A program made the translations under genes and the position numbers. 64,000 nucleotides of DNA, taken from Dirofilaria immitis. Lineage: Eukaryota > Nematoda > Chromadorea > Rhabditida > Onchocercidae. The stretch spans positions 3,642,501 through 3,706,500 of the forward strand of contig JAKNDB010000107.1 of assembly GCA_024305405.1 (NCBI GenBank), given 5' to 3'. Below are positions 34,901 to 57,403 of the stretch, one piece after another (within the stretch, counting starts at the first letter, position 1; each line of letters opens with the position of its first letter). The notes under the pieces were generated by a model. The model was not told where the DNA came from and made no database searches. It was given only the letters and a program-made list of their open reading frames with translations.

Positions 34901-37900
34901 ACGAATTGATTGAGGAGCCATTTAGATGGGATCAGCGCCTCTATTCAATAGTTTTGCGTCTTAGTGGTAATACTCCCGTTGGGAAAGTTTCTCCTGGAAT
35001 GAATATACCTTCCGATAATAGCCCTATTGATGCTATGTGTGTTGCAACTGGAGGTAAGATATTCATTCAGGAAATGATTTCTTTGTCATCTTTAAGTAAA
35101 AGGCATTTTTGTCACATTTTTTTCTCTTATATAGATAATTTGTAGTTTTTGCTTGAAATTTGGTTTTATATTTTATTTTGTTCTTTATTTTCATCAGATT
35201 TTTTCATCACTTATAATTTATAGTGGGAATTTTATTAAACAATTGAATATCCATGAAAGATTTAGGACGATCATACTGCGTATCGTCACATAAGATGTTG
35301 GCTATGTGTGTTGAATCGGTTGTTCAGAAACTACAGCAACAGGGAATCGTTTTGCGTTTCGAAAAATACGGACCAGATCCTACACTGAATTCTGGTATTT
35401 TCCGCGACTTATTTATTCTAAAATTTAAGCACCTGAACGCAGAAAAAATAGTTGCCTTACAAACTTGCGAGGTGAGTTTTTTTTGTTTTTCAGATCGAAC
35501 AAATGGTATTATTGAAAATGGAAGTTCGAAGAAAAATGGTGAATTATCATGTACTGGTGGTAAACCATTTAATTCAGAAAATTGGCATAATGTTACTTGT
35601 ACCGTTTACTCACGTGCATCGCGATCATATCCTGGTCACTGGCCTATTCCAGAGGCATTTTGGCCCGATCGCAGCATGTAATTTTTTTCACTTTGGAGAT
35701 TTAAAACTCACTGTATGGTTATTACAGTCATGAAATATAAAATTCACTACACAGTTGTTATAGTCATGAGATTTCGAAATATGTTGCATTCGTTTTTCAA
35801 AAAATCGCTAGTAAATTGCAGTGTATTTTTTTCTTCAAGAGAAACCTTTCGTTAATACATCAGGTTGCAGGACAAGTTTACCGCCACGAAAAGCTCATCC
35901 GGTGATCTCATTTCGTTGTGAATCATGCGAACCTCTTGTTTGTCAGGATTTTCCATTTGATAAATATGAACTTGAGCCTTCGCCCTTAACAAGGTTTATC
36001 TTAGAGCGTAAACAATCTGGAGTTTGTTGGCAGGTATAATTTTGTTTCCCATTTTTTCTAAAATTTTTTTTTGAAAAATCATAAACTTTTCTAGACTAGA
36101 AATTTGGTTTTGTCAACTTTTTTAATTCTTCTTGTTCGGATGCGTTTTTCATGAACTTCAAATTTTCATGAAAATAGACGCTTAGTTAAAAAGAAGTGGG
36201 CCAAACTATATCATTTAATGTTGACAATAAAACAAAGTGAGTCTTTATCAGAAAACCCATATATATTTTCTTATACGATTAGTGATAGAAGGTAGTTATT
36301 GGATCTTAAATCTTTTGTTAGGGGTGATGAAGATTTCAGGTTTTTGTTCATAACTCAAGTATACTCGGGAGTTCACTGGCTCCTTTTGGATACCTCAAAG
36401 CGGCTACCAACTTATCATCTGTAAATTTATTTATTATGCCTTACAATTATCCACTTTTGCTTCCTCTCATTGAGGAAATGAAGATGGATTCAAAAGCCAA
36501 GAACAGCCACTCTTGGAGGCTGCGTCTGGAAAAGTATTTATCTACAGTACCAAGTTATTACGTGCAGGTACATATAATTTTGACATCAGAATTGTACTTA
36601 TCATTTATCTGGTGTTGTTTTATCACCAGTGCCATTTTCAGTAATCAATAGTCAGGAAGATATGAGTTCGGTCTCATTTTGTCTCATTCACATCACTTTA
36701 GGTGATTATTCTTTATTTTCAGAAGGATGAAATAGTACGGAATTAGTTTTATAATTTCAACATTTCAAAATGCTTTCATAATGTGAATTGGAAGAGCATT
36801 TATGTTTGCTATTCCTCTGCAATTTTAAAACTGAGTCTTCATTTTAGCCATTGAAAAAGGCATTTACTCGATTAAATATCTCACATCCGATGTTGGAACC
36901 TGATCAAATGCAACAATATTCATATAACATATTGTCATACATTGCGAAAGTGAAACACATGGCTCGTGAAGAATTTGAATCACTGTGTAGTACTGTGGCG
37001 GCATCATTACAAATTTCGGTCCCACTTATATCATTGGTTTGTTTTATGTACAAATATTTGTTAGGAAGCCAGTTTCTCTATTGAAATCAGTTGGATTCGT
37101 TTATATTATTATTTTAGGTTAGTGTTCAGAAACGTGCGCGTCTACGAGATAGTTGGAGTTTGAAAAGAATCTCTGGATATAGTGATATGGACAGTTTTCA
37201 CGGGTTCCAGGTTTTTTTCTAATTGGGCAAAGTTTTCATTTTTGTTGCTTATATATTATTTATAGCAGAGTTTATATATGTTTCTAGGATTCAAAGTACT
37301 TTTTCATAAAATAACTGTATCCATATATAAGTAAATAATAAATAATGTATACTACAAAAATTATTATGTGAAATTTGCATATGTTAAATATGCAACTAAC
37401 TGCAGGTGCAAGTTGATATACCTAAAATATTAATTGCTCCATCGTTGCAATTTCGAAATCCCTTTGAAATCAGGCGAGGTAAACTCTTCGAACAAGTACA
37501 GAAAATGCGAATTAATTTAATGCAACAGCTCAGCATTGGGCAGATACCGGTGTTTGAGGGTGGTCGACCGGGTACCAGCATCAAATTACAACATGCCGGT
37601 TTGTTTTATTGTTTTCCAGTATTTTTCATTAATAGATAATTGATAGATTTTTTATTGATAGTTTTTTAGTGAGCATTCCATGTTGCATTTATACTTATTT
37701 TGCAGAGGATTTGCACAATCTTCCCATTAGCCAGATGGGAAATTATCAAGAATATATCAAGAGTCTTGAGGCTGTAGGACGTGCCCCACTTAGAGAAGTT
37801 GAACCTCAAGCAATCCGTGTACATGCTTTCGGAAATCCATTTAAAATCGATAAGGTATGTAATCCTCGAACATTTTTCGAAAAGCTGTATAAAATTCGAG

Positions 37901-40659: not shown

Positions 40660-43910
<3,251 letters not shown>

Positions 43911-46030: not shown

Positions 46031-49000
46031 ATGTCTGTTTCTGCGGCTTCAACCTCAAATGCAAACAGTAGCAGTAATGAACCAGTAACGACTAGTGGCA
46101 GCACGTTGGGAGCATCAGAAAATCCATCTGCGTCAGATGAGAAAGCATCGGCAATGGACGTAGAAAACATTCAAATTGAGGAGTCACAAAATGGCGAAGG
46201 AGCCTCATCAGAACAGCATGTTGATGATGGAGATAATGATGATAGTGGTGCTGATATTGGTTTAGCTGTACCATCAACAAATGGCTGGGAATCGCCGCGA
46301 CAGGTTTGTTTAACTTAGTGCGCTGTTTGCATTCTTTTTGTTTGACGAGCATAAATTTTGGCTAGTTACTGCGTAAGCCTCATTTGAGTCACGTTGATGC
46401 TGTTTACCCATTCAGTAATCCAAATTTTATAGGAAGCAATTAATGGAGTAGTGCAGCCGCGTGTGATCCCACCGCCAGGTAAGCCTACACGGCATACAAA
46501 TCAGTTGGAGTTCATGTTGAAGGAAGTTCTGAAACCGGCGATGCGTCATAAGCACGCTTGGCCATTTATGAAACCTGTAGATGCTGTGCGTCTGGGACTT
46601 CCGGTATGCTTTTGTATGTGAACGAATTTTTTTGCAAATTTAGTTATTAATTATTGAGATCACTTAATACATTAAGGGAATTCAAATATTTCGAAGATAT
46701 AGTAAGAGTTAGTGACAATTAAATTTTTGAAGGATTATCACAAGGTGATCAAGCGTCCAATGGACATGAATACCATCGAAAAACGCTTGCGCAACTGCTA
46801 TTACTACTCGGCAAAAGACTGCATGCAAGTAAGTAGGCCCTTATTTTTTGAGCTCGAAACAATGTGTGCGGGGGACGCTATTCGAATCTGAAATTATATT
46901 TTCTTGATACTCTCATTGTCTTTCTATTACATATATTATGAGAAAACCGGGCGGATGAATGGTCACAAAATTGATTATAAAATAAGAATGGGTTGTTGTG
47001 TGCACACAACCGTTTGTTATCATTCTCATCCATTTAAATAAGCAAATATTTCTCGCTTTATAAAATCATCTAAGAAAAACTGATTTAAAAAGTCTGCCTT
47101 AGTTTTGTATTCAATGGACGAGAAAATTCTTTAGATGCCAGGGGTAATTCTTGACTCTTTTGAAGTTTCCACAATAACGAGCAGGAAATATTCTTGCACC
47201 AGCTTTTTGTTACGAATTTCTTTCAATTAGCGCCTTCCGAATTTAATGGGCGCTATTTAAAAGTCATTTGCAAAGAGAACATCGCAACGCGAGCATATTT
47301 CATAAGTGATTCGATTGAAAACGAAAAAATAAAACGAGGATTATGTGGCATTGATTTCATCTGAATCATTTTTGGGCTGCTTCATTTCCGTTCACTCCTA
47401 AATTTTTGGTGTTTTTAAACTTAGCTGTGTCTTTGTGTGTGTGTGTGTTTTTTCTCACCGATTTTTTCAGATATAGATAACTATTGGATTACTTTTTTCG
47501 TTATGAAACATTGGTAACAAAAAATTTCAAAAAGTTCAGTTCTGTTTTTTCGCAAAATGTATATGACATGTTTTTTTGGTATGAGAAAGAGAAAAATGGA
47601 GTTCCAAGCTTTTGTTTGGTTATAGCACAATTTTTTGTTCACCATTGCTGTTTTAGTTATTACAGTTTTAGAAGATGAGGAGTTGCTTTGTTGTTTTACA
47701 TGAAGTTAATTGTTTCACTCTTTTTTCTTCATGTATTTATGCGGTTTCTGAAGCACGAACTGTGTTGCTGTGTTCGATGTTACTTTTTCTACTAACGCTT
47801 TGGCTTTTATGTTGTTGAGACTCTAATTGTATATTGAATTTTCCAGCAGAAAAGGAAGAAATTATGAGTGATTTACGAACACTTGCGCAGAGAGAACTGT
47901 TTCCTCACAAGGCTGATTTCCCAGAATTTGAATCCTTAGCCGTTAATGGTAATCTAGGTTTTGATTTCGAGATTGAGAAGCATTTGATGTAACTTTCAGT
48001 TCGATTCCTTCAATCTTTATCCTTAAATGATTTGAAGGCTTCCAGAAGTTTCTGTGATAGTCTTCTACCTAAAGACTGGGGTAAAGAAGTTCCATTGATG
48101 TGGGTTGTGGAGAGTTAGGAATCGTACCACATCTGGGAAGACGTGCGAGCGGTGACAGAATGATTGTATTTTGCATGTAATCGCAGGGATATCAAAAGCT
48201 TTGGTCGCTACAGGACTCACGTAGCTAATTCTGTGCTATGACCCGTTTAACATGCATGGTTTTCCTTTGTTACAAATCTGGCACTAAGATATCAAAGAAA
48301 ACGCATAACAGAATTATTTCCTGATCTGCTGTGTCTTGGACGGTATAAATGTATCATGTATACATGTGCTGTATATGTATGGTATGCTTCTTTTGTTTTT
48401 CCCAAACTTGTTTTCTTAGTGCACCGTGCATGCGGAGTAATAGGGAATAATGGAATAGAAGCTGAAGGGCAGGCCTGTTTTTCTTTATTGCAAATTTTGG
48501 GATTCTGGATTGGTCTTGGCATTTTTTTTTTTGCAATTCATTTTATGATTTTTGCGACGAGTATGGAATACAATCTTTCTCGGCAGAAATACTGCAAATA
48601 GATGATGATAGTGTGAGGTTAGAAAGGAACTCTTCTTTTCATTTTGAGTATATGCTGTTTTCTGATCTCATAATGTTATTGCGAAGTAAATTGGTTAGAC
48701 TATTAGAATTATGTGGGTGATAATAAACCAGATATTGACAGTAAGGATGAAAGATGCTGCAAGGAAAAATTCTAAGACTCGGAGAACTTTGCCAATATTT
48801 CCTTCAGTTTTCACATATAGTTTTTCCAGTACTTTCCGGAATATAAAAACCGAAGAAAATTAATTGTGGATTTGAAAGTAGAGTTGCTTATCTTCAGGTT
48901 TTTAAATTCTAACGCTGCTAAATTCTCATTTCTTCATGCTATGTATTGTCCTTTTGTGAGTTCATTTTGTAAAATCTCAATTATTATTTTAGTATCCAGG

Positions 49001-52000
49001 GTACAAATACCCGTGATATTTTTTTGAATGTTAAATTATTGAGTGAGAGGAATCATGTATGTCTTTAGGAATTACAAGATGTACTTTGTATGGTTCGTTG
49101 TGTTTGCTTGGGAGTGGATGGTAATTGTTGCAGCTTAAAATATTTATTATGCAGAAACTGTTGCCACTTTGAAGCTTGAAATAGCTAGCAGCTAAGCGCG
49201 GTTCTCTTTGTTCAGGACGTTATGACAATGTTCAACAATTGCTACACGTACAACCCTCCTGAGTATGGGGTTTATATGATGGCGAAGAACCTGGAACAAT
49301 ACATTCTCACCAAACTCGCAGCGATGCCCCGGAAGTAAGACTTTTCTATTATTCATTAGATCTGTTTTTGCTAGTTTTCAGGATTTTGAGTCCATTTTTT
49401 CCAACTGCTACAAATTCAACCAAAATGAGGACGACGTGTCACTTATGTGCAAGAACGTGGAAAATTTGTACAGAGAAAAATGAAACTGCTTCCTTCTCAG
49501 GTATTTTTAAAAGTTTCACACTGTTCGATTTTGCGTGCAGTATTCAAAGGTTTGTGAATGTTTTTTGTTTTTTTATTTTCCGCTTGTTTCTAATTGTTAT
49601 GGCACTCTCTGTGCTAGCCTGATATTCACGAGTATTTGATTTAGGAAGTGGAGATACCGCGTCCAACAGCTAAGCGAACTGCTGGTAAATCGAAGAAGTT
49701 AACTGGTCGTGTTGCAGTTGTGAAAGGAGGTTCTCTTGCACTTTTATGATTAAACCATTGTAAATTGTGTTTTTTCACATTTAAGTATTTCTAATCTTCA
49801 GGAAGCCGTGAGTCATCTGTATCTGTACAACGTGGGGCTGCCGATAGCTCATCGATTTTGGATGCCGCAGCAAATGGAGCCATTCACGCTTCTGCATCAG
49901 CTGGTGTAGATGATGTTCATCCTTCATCGTCGCAAGCGCCTGTCCAACCTGTTCTTCCTTCGAAGGTTCTTCTGCTGTCCGTAAAAAATCTCACATTCCA
50001 CTTTGAAATTTTTGCTTTGATTCTTATTGATCTTATCGACCATTTCGTTTGATAAATGTTATAATCGATGAGCGATTTCTTCCTTACTTGTATCTGGTAT
50101 ATGAACCAATTTTAGGTTCAGAAAGGTGTCAAGCGGAAGGCAGATACAACAACATCATTTGGTGACGACCTCGTAAGCGCAAAAATTGCAACTCGCCGGG
50201 AATCTGGACGACCACCCAAAAAGCCAAACTATTTCATCGATTACAATCAGTTGAAGCCGCGTTTTAAAGGAAAACAAACTGAACAAATGAAATTTTGTCA
50301 ACGCCTCGTCAATGAATTATTTACGAAGGTATCAAATAACATTCAGCTGTGTAACGATGCAAATTAGTGTCTTTTTTTTTCCTTTTTTTTGAAATACGTG
50401 CGTTACGTGTTTCCCAAAAGAAGGACCAAGGCTTTATTCTTACTAGAGGTCTTGCCATTCTTTAGAGTATACAATGTTAATTTTTAACGGATTTTGTCTG
50501 CGTATTATACGGAAGTATGGAATATGTACTTCACTACCTACTGTTGATTCTAAGAATTTGAATCACATAGGAAACAAAAGAATGGTTGTGATAGGAATAA
50601 TGAACGAAATATTTTTCTAGTAGTTGGTATGGTTAGTTAATGGAGGTATTTTATTTGGTTATTAAGGCTAGGATGTAACATATTTCCTTTATTTGATTAA
50701 TCTTTGCATAATTTAATAAATGGATATATATTTAGAAATGTAAGTCATTTACCTGGCCATTTCTTGAGCCGGTGGATGTCGAAGGTTTAAAATTGGAAGA
50801 TTACTATGATATTGTGAAGAATCCAATGGATCTTGGGACGATTAGGTAATTGATTGTCAGTTATTTTCATTTGAGGTATTAACTGTTGGTTGTAGTCTGC
50901 AAATATCTAATTTACTCGTTCTTATTCGGTTTAAGATTACAATTAAAATAAATGCGGAAAATGACTGGTTGGTTGAAGATTTGAATTTTTTGAGTTCCCA
51001 TATAATATTGAAATTTCTCTCTATTGCTTGCCATTGTATTTACGATAGATCAGTGTTTTTTGTTTTAAATAAAATATGTCTTACCTGAAATTAATAATTT
51101 TGAGGAGGAAGCTGGATGCTAAGCAATATGCCACGCCAGAGGAGCTACGGGCTGATGTTATTTTGGTCTGCGAGAATTGCTATAAATATAATCCCACGTC
51201 AGATCCAATTCACCAGCACGGTCGAGCTCTTCAGGTTATTTGAAATTTCAAATTTCAGCGGACTAAAGGAAAATTTTTGGTTGTATCATAAGTTAGAACA
51301 TTTTTAGAAGTATTTCGAAGACAAATGGCGTCAAATGCCTGAAGAACCAGTAATAGTTGATGAGGGAACAGCATCAGCGATGGCAGCACAATTGGTAACA
51401 GCAGCGATCCCCACACCAATGAGTCATGTTACACCGCCAACTCATACAGTCACACCTGCTTCCACAATAGTCAAGGATGATTCAGTGGTCTCTGGACTTC
51501 CTCTTGTACCATTGGATGTTTCTTCAGGTGTTATTGACAGTGATGAACATATTGATCTCATTTTACTTGCACTGCAAACTGAAACTGCCAAATGCCAGGA
51601 AAAATATCCGAGCTTCAGCGTCATTCGCAGGAAATTCTGTCATTAAGGTTTAGTTTTTATTTTGTTTAAAAAAAATCTCTATTAGACAAATAACAAAAAT
51701 GGAAATTGAAAAGTAGCTCATCGAAAGTACGGGATGTTAAAATTTGCGGATTTATTGTAAAACTAATTCTGATATTGTTATAGGCTGAAACGAAGGGAAG
51801 CACAAGCAAATCATCTGCCAGTCCCAGTTCTTTCGGCATCTACTGTGGGCACTCTTCAATCTTTAGTTTCAACACAGTTTTCCTTTATTGCCAGTAGTCC
51901 AACTTCGATGATGAAGCCATCCGCTGCGTATCCAACCAGCAGTGGTTCTGCTTCTGTGTCACGTAAAAACCCGGACGTCCTGCCAGGACATACCAGCAGC

Positions 52001-55000
52001 AAGCACCGGGATTACCAGCAGGGCTGCGTGCAAATAATGTTACCCCAGAGATATTGACTCAAGAGCGAGAACTGAAGCATGAAATAAATTCACCGTTGAA
52101 CAAGACTTCTACTCATCAACGGCAGGTTCAAAATTCGGTGCATGTGACTACTGCAAATGTACGCTCAGCGACATCGGTTCCACCTCAGGGAACACCTCAG
52201 AAGTCTTCGGAACAGAATGCCCAAGCGTCAGTAGCTCGTAAGCGCGGTCGACAGCCTGGCTCTAAGAACAAACCAAAGACAGATATGGCTCAGCCAGGTA
52301 CACCGGTTGCAGACGTTCCACCGCGACAGTCTGGATCAAAGAGGGTACGTGAAGATTATGACTTCGATTCTGAAGATGAACGAACCGCAGAACCAATGAG
52401 TTATGACGAAAAGAGACAGCTTTCGTTAGATATCAACAAACTGCCCGGTGATAAACTCAGCAGTGTAAGTTTTTAATAAACTGTTAGATATGATTAGAAT
52501 TGTTATTTCATTATGTTGAAGTTTTTTAAATTGATGTTTTGTTTATCATGAAAATTAGTTTTTAATTTGGAATACTTGAGGAAATTTATCCCATTTCAGA
52601 GATAAGTTTTTATGATACTAAACTGTAGACAAATAATACATCTTGATGTCTGTACCCACATTTCTGTAGTAAGGTGCAATTTAAATTGCACTTTGGATTC
52701 AGTTTTATTTGGTTTCATGCTTTTAGGTTGTCAGTATCATTGAGTCGAGAGAGCAGCTTCCGGGTTTTAATCCGGAAGAAATTGAAATCGATTTCGAAAC
52801 TCTTAAAGCTACTACGTTGCGCGAATTAGAAGCTTTTGTTGCTGCATGCTTAAAAAGAAACCGCGAAAACCGTACAGTATGTTTCAGTTCTTTCTAAATG
52901 ATTATGTTGTGTCTTAACAGCCGTAAAGATTCCAATATTAACAGTTTGATTCTTCCAGCACCGAAGTCGCAGAAAGAAGTTGAGATTAAGAAACGAGAAT
53001 TAGAAGAGAAGATCAAAGGCTTGGGTGGAGTAATCACTTCAACTCCTGTAGCTGTAGGTTGGTGTTTGTATTAATTGAAATTTTGCTGAAGATTTTGATG
53101 GTCATATCTTCAGTAAGTTGTTGCTTGCTTTCTTTTTCACTGTGCGCAAAGAGTGTTATTTTTATTTCAGCGCAAAATGGTGCACGAACAGAGCCAACAA
53201 CCACGGGTAAAGGCGGTGAGCCGTCGTCTTCAGAATCTTCTTCAAGTGAAGATGATTCATCATCGGACTCGTCATCTTCGGATTCCTCAGATAGTGAATC
53301 AGGTTAGAGTGTTATTTGACATGGTGACATGAAATTTTAAGACACTTTCGCGTTTTTTCTCATTTTTATTTGTTCCTCTTGTTTATTTGATCTTGTTTTT
53401 AGAAACTCATTTCTTCTACTTACCTCATTAGCATTTATTGTAATTTAATTGCTTAATTCAGGCACTTAATTTTATTTTTTGGTCGTTATTAATGCCAAAA
53501 TAACTAGCATAGGGCGATAGTAATTCTTAATGTCATTAATTTTTGATTGTTGATTCCTACTATAATTTAAGGGAACGTTGTTTTTGAATTAATAAGAGGT
53601 GCTCTTTTCATTTATTTTAATGACAAAAGCTTCATCATCGAGAATGTGTGATGCTGTTGTTTATCCATGTAAGATTATGCCCGTAAGTGCAATATCTACA
53701 ACAGGCAACACAGTTGCATACAAATCTCTCGCTCTAAACACGGTGGTTGATGCCTGTCAATAGGAAAGATCTCTTTAAAAATCATTTAAAAAGTTAAAAT
53801 GAGACGAAGTAAAGACAAAAATTGCAGTTGTGTGATTCTCAATTCTTTTTCACGAGTCTTTGATTGCCAGAGCCGGAACCATTTGCCATCTTCATTATTT
53901 TCGATAATTGAGTTATCTTTTTAAAATTTTTGCAAACAACTTTTCTCCTTTTTTGCACATCACTTAGTAAGATGATTATTCATAGTTAGTGCTTGGCGAA
54001 TTCTGTTGAAAAAAAAAGGAAGTCGCTGTTTGTGTTGATAACCTGAAGTGGAATTGCACTTCCGGAAAGGGTTTATTTGTTCTATATGGTATACCTTTTA
54101 AATTGAAAAAGCAGGAAGACAAGATAAGATATGAAAGTACTGCTAGAAATTGTTATTCCACATTTCTTTTGTGGTTATTTCCTTTATTTTTTCGTGATGT
54201 GCAAAAATTTTTTGACAATGTTTTGTCAGATTTTTTTGTTGAATCCTATCGTTTCTTAATTTCTGCAGTTCTGTTTATTTTCTGATCATTTTATACTCTC
54301 CTAACTTTTCGTTCAAAAGTAATTGTAGGAAATAGCCTTATGTTTCTGCCGTTCGAGAATATTTCGAAGGGACATGTGCTGTATGACTTGGTTCTGGGAA
54401 ATCATCAAATAGTAATAGAATTTGATTTAAACTCTCCTGTTATTCCCATCTTCTAAGAATTGGATTTCTTTGATATTTATTCATGAAACCATTGGTAATA
54501 AAATGACAGTTTCTCTTCAGATCTTACTGCATCGTTTCATGTTTTTCGTAGTAACACGTTTTATGGTGCATATTATCTCGCTGCAGTTTTCCTGAGTTCA
54601 AACGTTGTATCTGTTTTAAAATGCCAGTAATTGATTGATTGATAATACGATTCTCATTGCATAGTACAGCGATCTTATAAAATATTTGTTGGTGATGATT
54701 TACTGACTACTTTTTGTTTTTTTTTTGCTGTGCACGGAATATTATTGTTATTTTGTCCAGTTCGATTCCACGACACAATATTTATCATTCATTCTTCATC
54801 GATAAAATAAGTCGTTTTTATTTATACTGATACCATACAAAAAAGAAAAAAATAGCGTGGAAAAGAAAAAAATAGGCGTCAATCACCATTCGTACAGAAG
54901 CGAGAGTTTTGTATGTGAAGGTAAAATATTATTAATCTTTGTTCAGAAGATTCTGTTCAAAGTGTATAATTTATTCATAACCAAGCTTTTATCATAGCAT

Positions 55001-57403
55001 AAAAGAAGGCTTTCAGAGACCACAGGTAATGCAAAAGTGGAACATCAGGGACAGTGTATTGATGCTGAAAAGTCACAAGGTGCTGAACAATCAGTAGAAA
55101 AGGTGAAATTCCGTACTATATTTGGATAGTATTAGCAAAATAAAAAAACTTCAAGATTATGCACTGCTGATTCGATTCCTTCGATGATTTTGGGCGTAGT
55201 AAATGTATTAAATTATCCTTAATTTTTTTGAGTTTGAAGAATGTGAGTTATGCTGACATTGTAGTAGTGAAACCGTGGATCCATGATTTGAGGTTTAAAA
55301 TAAAATGTTTGAAGAAGGAAATAGCACCAAATGCATCATCTACAAACAGTCAGCAACAGCAGCTGGGTCCTATGTTGCAACAACCTACAAGCCATTTTCA
55401 GTTTGGGAGTGTCAAAGGTAATTTCGGTTTTTCTAAGTTAAGGATTTAGATAGGAAAGGAATCGTGTAATGGATAGTTGAGGAATGATAATTTTATATTT
55501 GGCAGAAAGAAAGTTACATTAACATAGGATTTCACATTTTCAGTGTGAAGTTTTTTAACGGTTATTACTGTTAATGAGTAATGTGTAATTTTTTTATTTT
55601 TATGTTTTTTCCATACTTTCCATGTAACGTGAAAATTTTTGTGTATCTGTAATGATGAATGCAATCAGCAGAAAAATGATACCATACAAAAAATAGTAAA
55701 TAGCAACGTGCGGAGATATAATTTTTTCCATTTCATACACAAAAATGATTTGTTCAACAAGCTGTCCATTTAAAAATACATTAGGAAGAATCCTCTATTT
55801 GCTCATTTTGATTCGTAAATGTTATTTGAGATTATTTGTCATTCTTTGTATCGCAGGATATTCAGCTGGATTTTTCAGAAGAACGGGGGATGGTGATAGT
55901 GGTGATTTAACAGTATCAGGAAACCAGCTCAGTAGTATAAGTTCGAATAATGCATTATCCGTTGTGTCGCAGCCACAGCAAGCACAACTGCAAATATCGG
56001 GAGGATCAATACTTGATCAGTTATTACCGGCAAAACAAAATGGTTTGACTAGCGAATCGTTAAGCGTGTAGTATTCTTCTGACAGTTTAATAAGTAGATG
56101 AACTAATGAGTGAAGAGTATTAAACTCTTCATGTTTGCATATCAGTTGGGCTGTTTGCACTGAATTCTGATATAGTTTTGATGTATGAATTATCAAATTA
56201 GTTATGGATTTCTTTTGCTTGGGATTTAAAATTGTTTCAAGAAAGGTTGCTTGATGATTGGTACGGAGATGATTAGACAAGTCCTATTCAAGTCCAAATA
56301 CTAAATGGTGTAAGAAGTATTTATTAACATTATTTTTTTAGAAATGGAAGACAAAACTGGTATAAAGAAGTTAGCTGGATGGGATACTTTAGCAAAAAGA
56401 GCCAGAGTGGTAGTTTGAATATGCAAACGTCAACGCAGTTTGAGTTATTTCGAAAACATGCCAGAGAAAAGGAAGAGAAGGTTGTTTATATTATTATGTC
56501 ATTATGCATCGGAAACGAAGAAGGATGTGTTATAGTTCGCATTGTCGAAAGATTATGTTGAATGGTAGTACCGGTGGGGAGTTTGTATGTTAAGTAGTAT
56601 GTTGTACTTAATGATGAAAATTTGTGTAGCGATGATAGGCATAAAAACATGTTAGGGAAATATTTATAATAATTGCATTATTTCATTTTGAAGCGTAAAC
56701 AGTTGAGAGTAGAGGAAGAACGAAGGCGCCGTTTGAAAGAACAGGAAGAAAAAGAGCGTGCTAAGGACCAGGCTGCAGCAGAAACTGCTGAGCTGGAGCA
56801 AAGAAGACAAAATGAACTTTTACGTCAAAAGAGCAGGTTAGATCTGCGATTTGGTTTAAATTTATAGGTCAATAGACGAAATAGTATGTTGAGATTAATC
56901 AGTAAATTGCAAAGCGAGCTTATTTATGGAGTATAAAATCATTTGCGCCACTACTCTTAACAATTCTTTTAATGAATTTTTTTCTGTCATAGCGAACGCA
57001 AAAGAAATTTGTTAGCACTTCGCTGAATATGTGACACTGTACGCAAATGTGACTAATTACCATGCTACGTGTTTCTCGTGTGGTAGCTTTAAATCATTAG
57101 GTCTTATGCGATAGTTTTAGATCGGTATTTAAAGGTAATTATTAATGACGGGGAGATTTTATATGTTGTATTCTATAGTAAATAAAAAAGTCATCACTTT
57201 TATGTTTGATGAGAACGTCATGTTGAAATGAAAATTACTTTGCAAACCAAGAACAAAACTAGTCTTTTAAGGAACAAAAAAATATGCGGATTTTTGAGAA
57301 AGCAACTAATTTGCAGGAAAGGCGACGTCGAGAAGCGATGAGTACAGGTGGCGATGTTACAAGCCAGATGGATTTAATGCTCAATTTTGAAGCTAATTTT
57401 TAG
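46031..57403 (+). CDS. bet-1: BET double-bromodomain protein with BRD4-type C-terminus
   Basis: Twenty exons per transcript, about 1,169 residues: 46031-46303, 46433-46603, 46733-46828, one of two exon 4 copies, 49645-49729, 49802-49965, 50116-50328, 50736-50845, 51108-51234, 51308-51647, 51784-52464, 52727-52876, 52959-53057, 53171-53302, 55017-55102, 55315-55417, 55857 to about 56042, 56342-56480, 56694-56836, 57317-57403. Order: acidic/Ser N-terminus; bromodomain 1 ([19 protein letters not shown], then [14 protein letters not shown]); AT-hook-like [11 protein letters not shown]; bromodomain 2 ([37 protein letters not shown]); AT-hook-like KKPGRPAR and [11 protein letters not shown] domain ([34 protein letters not shown]); Ser/Asp stretch; a charged coiled coil; and a final ERRRREAM...[11 protein letters not shown] like the P-TEFb-binding end of BRD4. 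It reads acetylated histones in the nucleus to drive Pol II transcription. Frame requires one extra base at 51600-51604, 51965-51969, 52852-52856, 56394-56398 and 56827-56830, and in each exon 4 copy. Confidence 0.97.
49216..49334 (+). other. BET alternative exon 4a (second half of bromodomain 1)
   Basis: The acceptor is TTGTTCAG and the donor GTAAGA. It encodes [19 protein letters not shown] followed by [19 protein letters not shown], i.e. helix B, the BC loop with the acetyl-lysine-contacting Asn, and helix C. It is 119 nt, but needs 120 to join exon 5 in phase; C4 at 49327-49330 read as C5 gives MPPE then EVEIPRP, as in other BET proteins. Confidence 0.9.
49382..49500 (+). other. BET alternative exon 4b (second half of bromodomain 1)
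   Basis: The acceptor is GTTTTCAG and the donor GTATTT, only 47 nt downstream of exon 4a. It encodes [19 protein letters not shown], then [13 protein letters not shown], and after adding one A to the A5 at 49476-49480, KMKLLPSQ. It is also 119 nt (120 corrected) and joins exons 3 and 5 in phase. It aligns residue for residue with exon 4a and with BRD4 bromodomain 1 (NCYIYNKPGDD). The Asn is kept, but the BC loop and helix C differ strongly from 4a. Confidence 0.85.

What the first reader, a model, noticed from the sequence alone, without database searches (positions are those of the whole stretch)
49216..49500. Two mutually exclusive exons give the BET protein alternative bromodomain 1 pockets
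Exons 4a and 4b are adjacent, equally long (119 nt), flanked by good splice sites, in the same phase context, and both align with helix B, BC loop and helix C of bromodomain 1. Both keep the acetyl-lysine-contacting Asn (NNCYTYN versus SNCYKFN), but the following loop is PPEYGV in one and QNEDDV in the other, and helix C differs almost throughout. The ZA-loop half (exons 2-3) is shared. The 47-nt gap between them could limit joint inclusion. One gene could thus make two BET readers differing in ligand preference. I know of no description of such a switch in BET genes.
Basis: partly seen in the sequence, partly recalled or inferred. Interest (0 to 1): 0.85.

Follow-up and report, generated by a model that had tools for sequence, protein, structure and literature searches.

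The report
Heartworm BET gene's swappable bromodomain exons
A heartworm gene for a chromatin-reading protein carries two alternative versions of one exon, a pair also seen across many nematodes, that would give its first bromodomain two different binding pockets and change the residue that drug designers use to tell such pockets apart.

Summary
The exon pair is real. Exons 4a (49216-49334) and 4b (49382-49500) are homologous, adjacent and in the same phase, and each completes bromodomain 1 (BD1) of a BET protein. The window's exons match a public Dirofilaria immitis BET protein at 1195 of 1203 residues.

Correction: as assembled, neither exon joins exon 5 in frame, and 4b holds an in-frame TGA. 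The gene has seven frame breaks, each near a short run of one base; the public protein reads through them all. I take them as assembly errors.

Of 72 nematode BET proteins listed, 26 carry only 4a, 20 only 4b, 20 both in tandem, 3 (Dorylaimia) a single unduplicated type, and 3 lack the region. 4b is monophyletic (support 99) across Plectus and clades III, IV and V.

At the BRD4 Asp144 position 4b has Asp in 39 of 39, 4a in 0 of 41. Chromadorean BD2 lacks the partner His437 in 66 of 67. The residue pair that separates BD1 from BD2 elsewhere thus looks, in these worms, like a splicing choice inside BD1.

Splicing exclusivity and ligand preference are inferred; no RNA or binding data were available.

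The parts
46031..46303 (+). exon 1 of the BET gene (start codon to phase 0)
   Evidence: identical to residues 1-91 of P0131
46433..46603 (+). exon 2: start of BD1, ZA-loop side including the WPF motif
   Evidence: identical to residues 92-148 of P0131
46733..46828 (+). exon 3: BD1 up to helix B, ends at phase 0
   Evidence: identical to residues 149-180 of P0131; donor CAA/GTAAGT
49216..49334 (+). exon 4a: helix B, BC loop (NPPEYGV) and helix C of BD1, variant a
   Evidence: broken in frame near its end as assembled, intact in P0131
49335..49381 (+). 47-nt intron between 4a and 4b
   Evidence: GTAAGA ... TTTTCAG
49382..49500 (+). exon 4b: helix B, BC loop (NQNEDDV) and helix C of BD1, variant b
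   Evidence: in-frame TGA at 49481-49483 as assembled, intact in P0131
49264..49266 (+). 4a codon at the BRD4 Asp144 position: Tyr
   Evidence: numbering from the gapless alignment to BRD4 BD1
49430..49432 (+). 4b codon at the BRD4 Asp144 position: Asp
   Evidence: numbering from the gapless alignment to BRD4 BD1
49645..49729 (+). exon 5, constitutive, begins at phase 0
   Evidence: EVEIPRP... follows 4b in P0131
50736..51234 (+). exons 8 (50736-50845) and 9 (51105-51234): most of BD2, with Asp at the BRD4 His437 position (51202-51204)
   Evidence: identical to P0131 residues 415-494; BD2 count; position
51784..52464 (+). exon 11, end of which begins the extra-terminal (ET) domain; the domain goes on in exon 12 (from 52727)
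   Evidence: PF17035 BET match at the end of 51967-52476; P0131 residues 608-836

Best explanation
This is the BET gene of Dirofilaria immitis (the BRD2/3/4 and C. elegans bet-1 kind). An exon duplication in an early chromadorean nematode gave it two versions, 4a and 4b, of the exon for helix B, BC loop and helix C of BD1. The spliceosome takes one or the other between constitutive exons 3 and 5, giving two full-length BET proteins that share the ZA-loop half but differ at the pocket mouth. 4b keeps the BD1-type acidic pair (Asp-Asp at BRD4 144-145). 4a puts Tyr-Gly there (Tyr, Ser, Phe or Cys at 144 in relatives), inside an NPP loop that resembles a canonical BD2. Both keep the Asn that holds acetyl-lysine. 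The likely effect is a change in affinity and flank preference for acetylated tails and in sensitivity to domain-selective ligands. Shown: exons, homology, phase, conservation, residue swap, each exon alone in database proteins. Inferred: single inclusion by regulated splicing, and the binding difference.
For: Exons and sites. Both BD1 forms pass Pfam Bromodomain and align without gaps to BRD4 BD1. Public D. immitis protein has both exons intact. Single-exon proteins: 26 with 4a, 20 with 4b of 72; in B. malayi P0006 has 4a only and P0139 ('Bm4523, isoform k') 4b only. 4b monophyletic, support 99. Class-specific residues: Asp at the 144 position 39 of 39 in 4b against 0 of 41 in 4a; Cys at exon position 23 in 39 of 39 of 4b against Ala or Gly in 41 of 41 of 4a. 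Within-class identity 0.72 and 0.76 against 0.35 between classes in one protein, 17 proteins. Asp144/His437 is the BD1/BD2 difference used for selective inhibitors (PMC10726358, passages).
Against: No RNA reads were available. 20 of 72 database models hold both exons in tandem, some with partial copies, among them the public D. immitis model P0131 and a B. malayi model P0145 ('Bm10119, isoform c'). Joint inclusion keeps the frame. The 47-nt intron has good splice sites. As assembled here neither exon keeps frame. No intronic motif or RNA structure that would enforce exclusivity was found. Published C. elegans bet-1A, B and C sequences show one exon form only, which is about equally far from 4a (17 of 40) and 4b (16 of 40) overall.
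Confidence: 0.75

Rival explanations
1. Both exons are joined in the normal mRNA. The protein then has a BD1 completed by 4a, followed by a second, orphan B-C hairpin from 4b.
For: 20 of 72 models are tandem, including P0131 of D. immitis; 40 + 40 codons keep the frame; the 47-nt intron has good splice sites.
Against: 46 of 72 models hold one exon only; C. elegans bet-1 coding sequences cloned from cDNA hold one. Both exons conserve bromodomain core and pocket residues, which an orphan hairpin would not need. Gene predictors tend to join such exons (recalled).
Confidence: 0.12
2. The exons are alternatively spliced, but the two BD1 forms bind the same ligands alike; the difference is neutral drift or tunes stability only.
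For: Asn140 (39 of 39 and 40 of 41) and Met149 side of the pocket are kept in both; the gatekeeper is Val or Ile in both. No binding data exist.
Against: Residues at the pocket mouth are fixed within each class across the sample, and the same residue decides selectivity between human BD1 and BD2.
Confidence: 0.1
3. One exon is a dead or unproductive duplicate, as the broken frames in this assembly would suggest.
For: As assembled, 4b has TGA in frame and 4a cannot join exon 5 in frame.
Against: P0131 of the same species is intact; five further exons of this gene show the same kind of break, all seven near runs of 4-5 identical bases; both exons are conserved across clades.
Confidence: 0.03

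Closest known systems
macroH2A1 (H2AFY) mutually exclusive exons, isoforms macroH2A1.1 and 1.2
   Same: A chromatin protein whose ligand-binding domain is changed by choice between two exons; 1.1 binds poly(ADP-ribose), the 1.2-specific exon abolishes it (PMC5770377, passage).
   Different: Different domain and lineage (vertebrate histone macrodomain, not a bromodomain). There the exon decides binding or no binding; here both forms keep the key Asn.
Human and animal BET proteins BRD2, BRD3, BRD4
   Same: Two bromodomains and ET domain; BD1 with either exon aligns to BRD4 BD1 over its length.
   Different: The non-nematode proteins compared fit one canonical exon-4 type (175 of 177) and keep His437 in BD2 (174 of 177). 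A review table of splicing in acetyl readers, seen in passages, lists other events for BRD2, BRD3, BRD4 and BRDT (PMC10968829).
C. elegans bet-1 isoforms A, B, C
   Same: Orthologous kind of gene; Asp-Asp in the BD1 loop as in 4b; Asp at the His437 position in BD2.
   Different: The printed sequences show the same BD1 by eye and diverge towards the 3' end; no 4a form among them.

Membership tests
BET protein | two bromodomains | tested here: met
   BD1 with either exon passes PF00439; BD2 exons match in the genome search with PF00439 and equal P0131
BET protein | extra-terminal (ET) domain | tested here: met
   PF17035 over its cut-off in one exon; P0131 carries PF17035
mutually exclusive exon pair | adjacent, homologous, similar length, same phase | tested here: met
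   40 codons each in P0131
mutually exclusive exon pair | each exon alone gives a complete product in frame | tested here: inconclusive
   true of public single-exon proteins such as P0006 and P0139; not of this assembly
mutually exclusive exon pair | the two are not joined in mature mRNA | tested here: inconclusive
   46 single-exon and 20 tandem models of 72; these are mostly predictions, no reads
mutually exclusive exon pair | regulated choice by stage or tissue | not testable with these tools

The most novel reading that the evidence does not exclude
In chromadorean nematodes the Asp/His difference that tells BD1 from BD2 in other animals has been taken apart. BD2 has lost the His (mostly to Asp), and BD1 has gained a splice switch between an Asp-Asp mouth (4b) and an aromatic or small one in a BD2-like loop (4a). 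One gene would then choose its acetyl-histone and inhibitor selectivity by exon choice: an ancient reader-pocket switch, older than the split of Plectus from clades III, IV and V, and absent from mammalian hosts.
Probability: 0.45. Interest if true: 0.82.

Novelty: new variant of a known kind. Interest (0 to 1): 0.7.

Why it matters
BET proteins are heavily studied epigenetic readers and drug targets, and the BET inhibitor JQ1 kills adult Brugia malayi in culture (PMC6890932, abstract and passages). If filarial worms make two BD1 pockets that differ at the residue used to design BD1- and BD2-selective inhibitors, inhibitor work in worms has to treat two targets, and parasite-selective ligands become conceivable, because the vertebrate proteins compared here show neither the 4a type nor the altered BD2. 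It would also be a natural experiment on what the Asp/His difference does. The splice question can be tested at once with existing RNA-seq.

Tried and rejected
Dead duplicate: rejected, because the seven frame breaks of the assembled gene are absent from P0131. Recent filarial-only duplication: rejected, because 4b is monophyletic across Plectus and clades III, IV and V. Steric exclusion by the 47-nt gap: not supported; tandem models exist and both splice sites look good. Splicing motifs: in intron 3, GTGTG 8 against 2.4 expected (1 of 300 shuffles reached it), five of the eight in one GT run; TGCATG 3 against 0.9 (6% of shuffles); no motif of the nine was enriched in the two short introns or the exons; no second genome at DNA level to test conservation. 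RNA folding of 49100-49700: z = 0.39, no sign of a special structure. Other copies in the genome: one place for the pair by DNA; protein searches found 4a and 4b plus distant bromodomain loci. Nematode DNA in prokaryote contigs: 42 pattern matches, none a relative. A first tblastn of P0131 against the window lost exons through my identity filter and was replaced by exact matching. The idea that C. elegans bet-1A/B/C differ in exon 4 was checked by eye on the printed sequences and rejected.

Full report
WHAT IS THERE. The window lies in an 86.7-Mb, 65-contig genome. The gene from 46031 to about 57400 on the + strand encodes a BET protein. Exact matching of its translated exons gives 1195 of 1203 residues identical to P0131, 'Bromodomain-containing protein [Dirofilaria immitis]', so I take the window as D. 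immitis, the dog heartworm. P0001, also D. immitis, looks like a model from this same assembly, since it ends in the same shifted frame in exon 10. Exons 4a (49216-49334) and 4b (49382-49500) lie between exon 3 (ends at phase 0) and exon 5 (begins at phase 0), with good splice sites.

THE FRAMES. As assembled both exons are 119 nt, which cannot lead into exon 5 in frame. No acceptor of the phase that 4a would need was found in 49501-49730, and 4b has TGA at 49481-49483. The same gene shows one net frame break each in exons 10, 11 and 12, in an exon near 55886 and in the exon at 56341-56480; with 4a and 4b that makes seven. Each lies within 12 nt of a run of 4-5 identical bases, and P0131 reads through all seven. 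The simplest reading is run-length error in this assembly.

HOMOLOGY AND FOLD. 4a and 4b share 14 of 40 residues. The ungapped BLOSUM62 score is 76 against a maximum of 30 in 100,000 shuffles, and profile comparison gives 98.7%. BD1 built with either exon passes Pfam Bromodomain (75.1 and 72.6 bits, cut-off 21.7) and aligns without gaps to BRD4 BD1, which fixes the numbering: exon position 13 is Asn140, 17 is Asp144, 18 is Asp145, 19 is the gatekeeper Ile146. At these places 4a reads Asn, Tyr, Gly, Val and 4b reads Asn, Asp, Asp, Val. No structure could be predicted.

DISTRIBUTION. Three protein searches listed their best 120 of 1685, 474 and 858 hits: 249 distinct proteins, of which I took 72 as nematode by name. 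Profiles of the two exon types and of a single canonical type sorted these 72: 26 hold 4a only, 20 hold 4b only, 20 hold both in tandem (some of them partial: P0016, P0144, P0163), 3 (Trichuris and two Trichinella) hold the canonical type, and 3 lack this part of BD1 (P0001, P0018, P0164). Several species appear more than once, so these are proteins, not species, and a 90%-identity cluster can hide further isoforms. Both types occur in clades III, IV and V (clade membership recalled); Plectus sambesii shows 4b. Of the other 177 proteins, named non-nematodes and unnamed sequences together, 175 fit the canonical type best and 2 unnamed ones fit 4a weakly, at 30 bits. In a 40-residue tree of 67 distinct stretches 4b is a supported split (UFBoot 99) and 4a is paraphyletic around it, with Rhabditophanes 4a nearest to 4b. 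One duplication in an early chromadorean explains this; the branching in detail is not resolved by so short a stretch. In the 17 proteins with full copies of both exons mean identity is 0.72 within 4a, 0.76 within 4b and 0.35 between the two in one protein. In the 10 of these that also show exon 3, identity is 0.64 (4a), 0.67 (4b) and 0.76 (exon 3 stretch), so both are somewhat less conserved than the constitutive neighbour.

THE SWITCH RESIDUE. Counts use 41 of 46 4a stretches and 39 of 40 4b stretches; five and one partial or indel-bearing ones were dropped. At the Asp144 position 4b has Asp in 39 of 39; 4a has Tyr 28, Ser 8, Phe 4, Cys 1 and never Asp. At Asp145, 4b has Asp in 39 of 39, 4a Gly 27, Glu 6, Asp 5, and one each of Pro, Ser, Ala. 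Asn140 is kept in 39 of 39 and 40 of 41 (Bursaphelenchus xylophilus has Cys). Exon position 23 is Cys in 39 of 39 for 4b and Ala or Gly in 41 of 41 for 4a. In human BET proteins Asp144 in BD1 and His437 in BD2 occupy the same place, and this swap is used to build domain-selective inhibitors (PMC10726358, passages). I then checked BD2: His stands there in 174 of 177 other proteins and 3 of 3 Dorylaimia. In 67 chromadorean BD2 stretches it is Asp 48, Gln 14, Thr 3, Ser 1 and His 1, after removing two of 69 rows (P0006 and P0030) where the best match was BD1. The window's own BD2 has Asp. Against a neat story: in the Dorylaimia the single BD1 type has Ser, not Asp, at 144, so Asp was not universal in nematode BD1 outside Chromadorea.

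HOW IT PROBABLY WORKS. Exon 3 is spliced either to 4a or to 4b and then to exon 5. The 4b protein has a BD1 of ordinary acidic mouth; the 4a protein has a neutral, aromatic, BD2-like mouth. Because Asn140 and the constitutive WPF shelf stay, both should bind acetyl-lysine but differ in flanking contacts. Anatomy and conservation are shown; single inclusion is supported by single-exon models but not by reads; the binding difference is inferred. Nothing in the frame forbids joint inclusion: 20 tandem models exist, including the public D. immitis one, and I give that rival 0.12. The 47-nt gap is not a convincing barrier. I found no intronic structure or motif that explains exclusivity.

C. ELEGANS. 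The bet-1A, B and C coding sequences printed in PMC9835578 and said there to be cloned from cDNA (sections read) carry, by eye, one and the same BD1 of Asp-Asp type and diverge later. Overall that stretch is about equally far from 4a (17 of 40) and 4b (16 of 40), so 'type b' there rests on the loop. The predicted C. japonica protein P0183 holds both types. I could not fetch C. elegans genomic DNA, so loss of 4a there is open.

IS IT IN PRINT? Full-text searches for mutually exclusive exons with bromodomain and nematode, with bet-1 and elegans, with BRD4 and isoform, and for bet-1 isoforms with alternative splicing, the double bromodomain protein BET-1, bet-2 or F57C7.1 and filarial bromodomain with JQ1 listed no paper that I recognised by title or abstract start as describing this pair (of 26 hits only 10 were listed). 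Term searches inside PMC3863420 and PMC3862036 found no mention of isoform, splice or exon; passages of PMC9835578 and PMC6890932 do not mention it. The library holds open-licence papers only; Shibata et al. 2010, which defined the bet-1 isoforms, was not read. Names such as 'Bm4523, isoform k' show that annotators keep isoforms of this gene, so the exons are in databases even if, as far as I could see, not discussed.

VERDICT. It is a new variant of a known kind (an exon swap in a reader pocket, as in macroH2A1). Interest 0.7.

Noticed in passing
window 51202-51204 (BD2); 67 chromadorean BD2 stretches: The BD2-diagnostic His437 is missing from 66 of 67 chromadorean BD2 stretches (48 have Asp), against His in 174 of 177 other proteins and 3 of 3 Dorylaimia.
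   Followed up: partly
window 46031-57400: Seven net one-base frame breaks near short runs of one base against the public D. immitis protein, a sign of run-length errors in this assembly; any single-base pseudogene call made on it is suspect.
   Followed up: yes
public proteins P0002, P0003, P0004, P0131, P0132, P0134, P0145, P0146 and others: 20 of 72 nematode BET models join both exons in one protein, and two (P0003, P0004) also hold extra residues between them; likely annotation errors if the exons are exclusive.
   Followed up: partly
Trichuris P0156, Trichinella P0211 and P0212: The single exon-4 type of these Dorylaimia has Ser at the Asp144 position although their BD2 keeps His437.
   Followed up: no
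window 41003-41569, - strand: Exon(s) of a TIP49 (RuvB-like) AAA protein gene upstream of the BET gene on the other strand (PF06068, PF17856).
   Followed up: no
window 35247-35681, + strand: Open frame with a match just under the cut-off to the INTS6 beta-barrel domain, perhaps an Integrator subunit 6 gene.
   Followed up: no
Bursaphelenchus xylophilus P0159: Its 4a stretch has Cys in place of the acetyl-lysine-binding Asn140, the only such case of 41; a sequence error or a lost reader.
   Followed up: no
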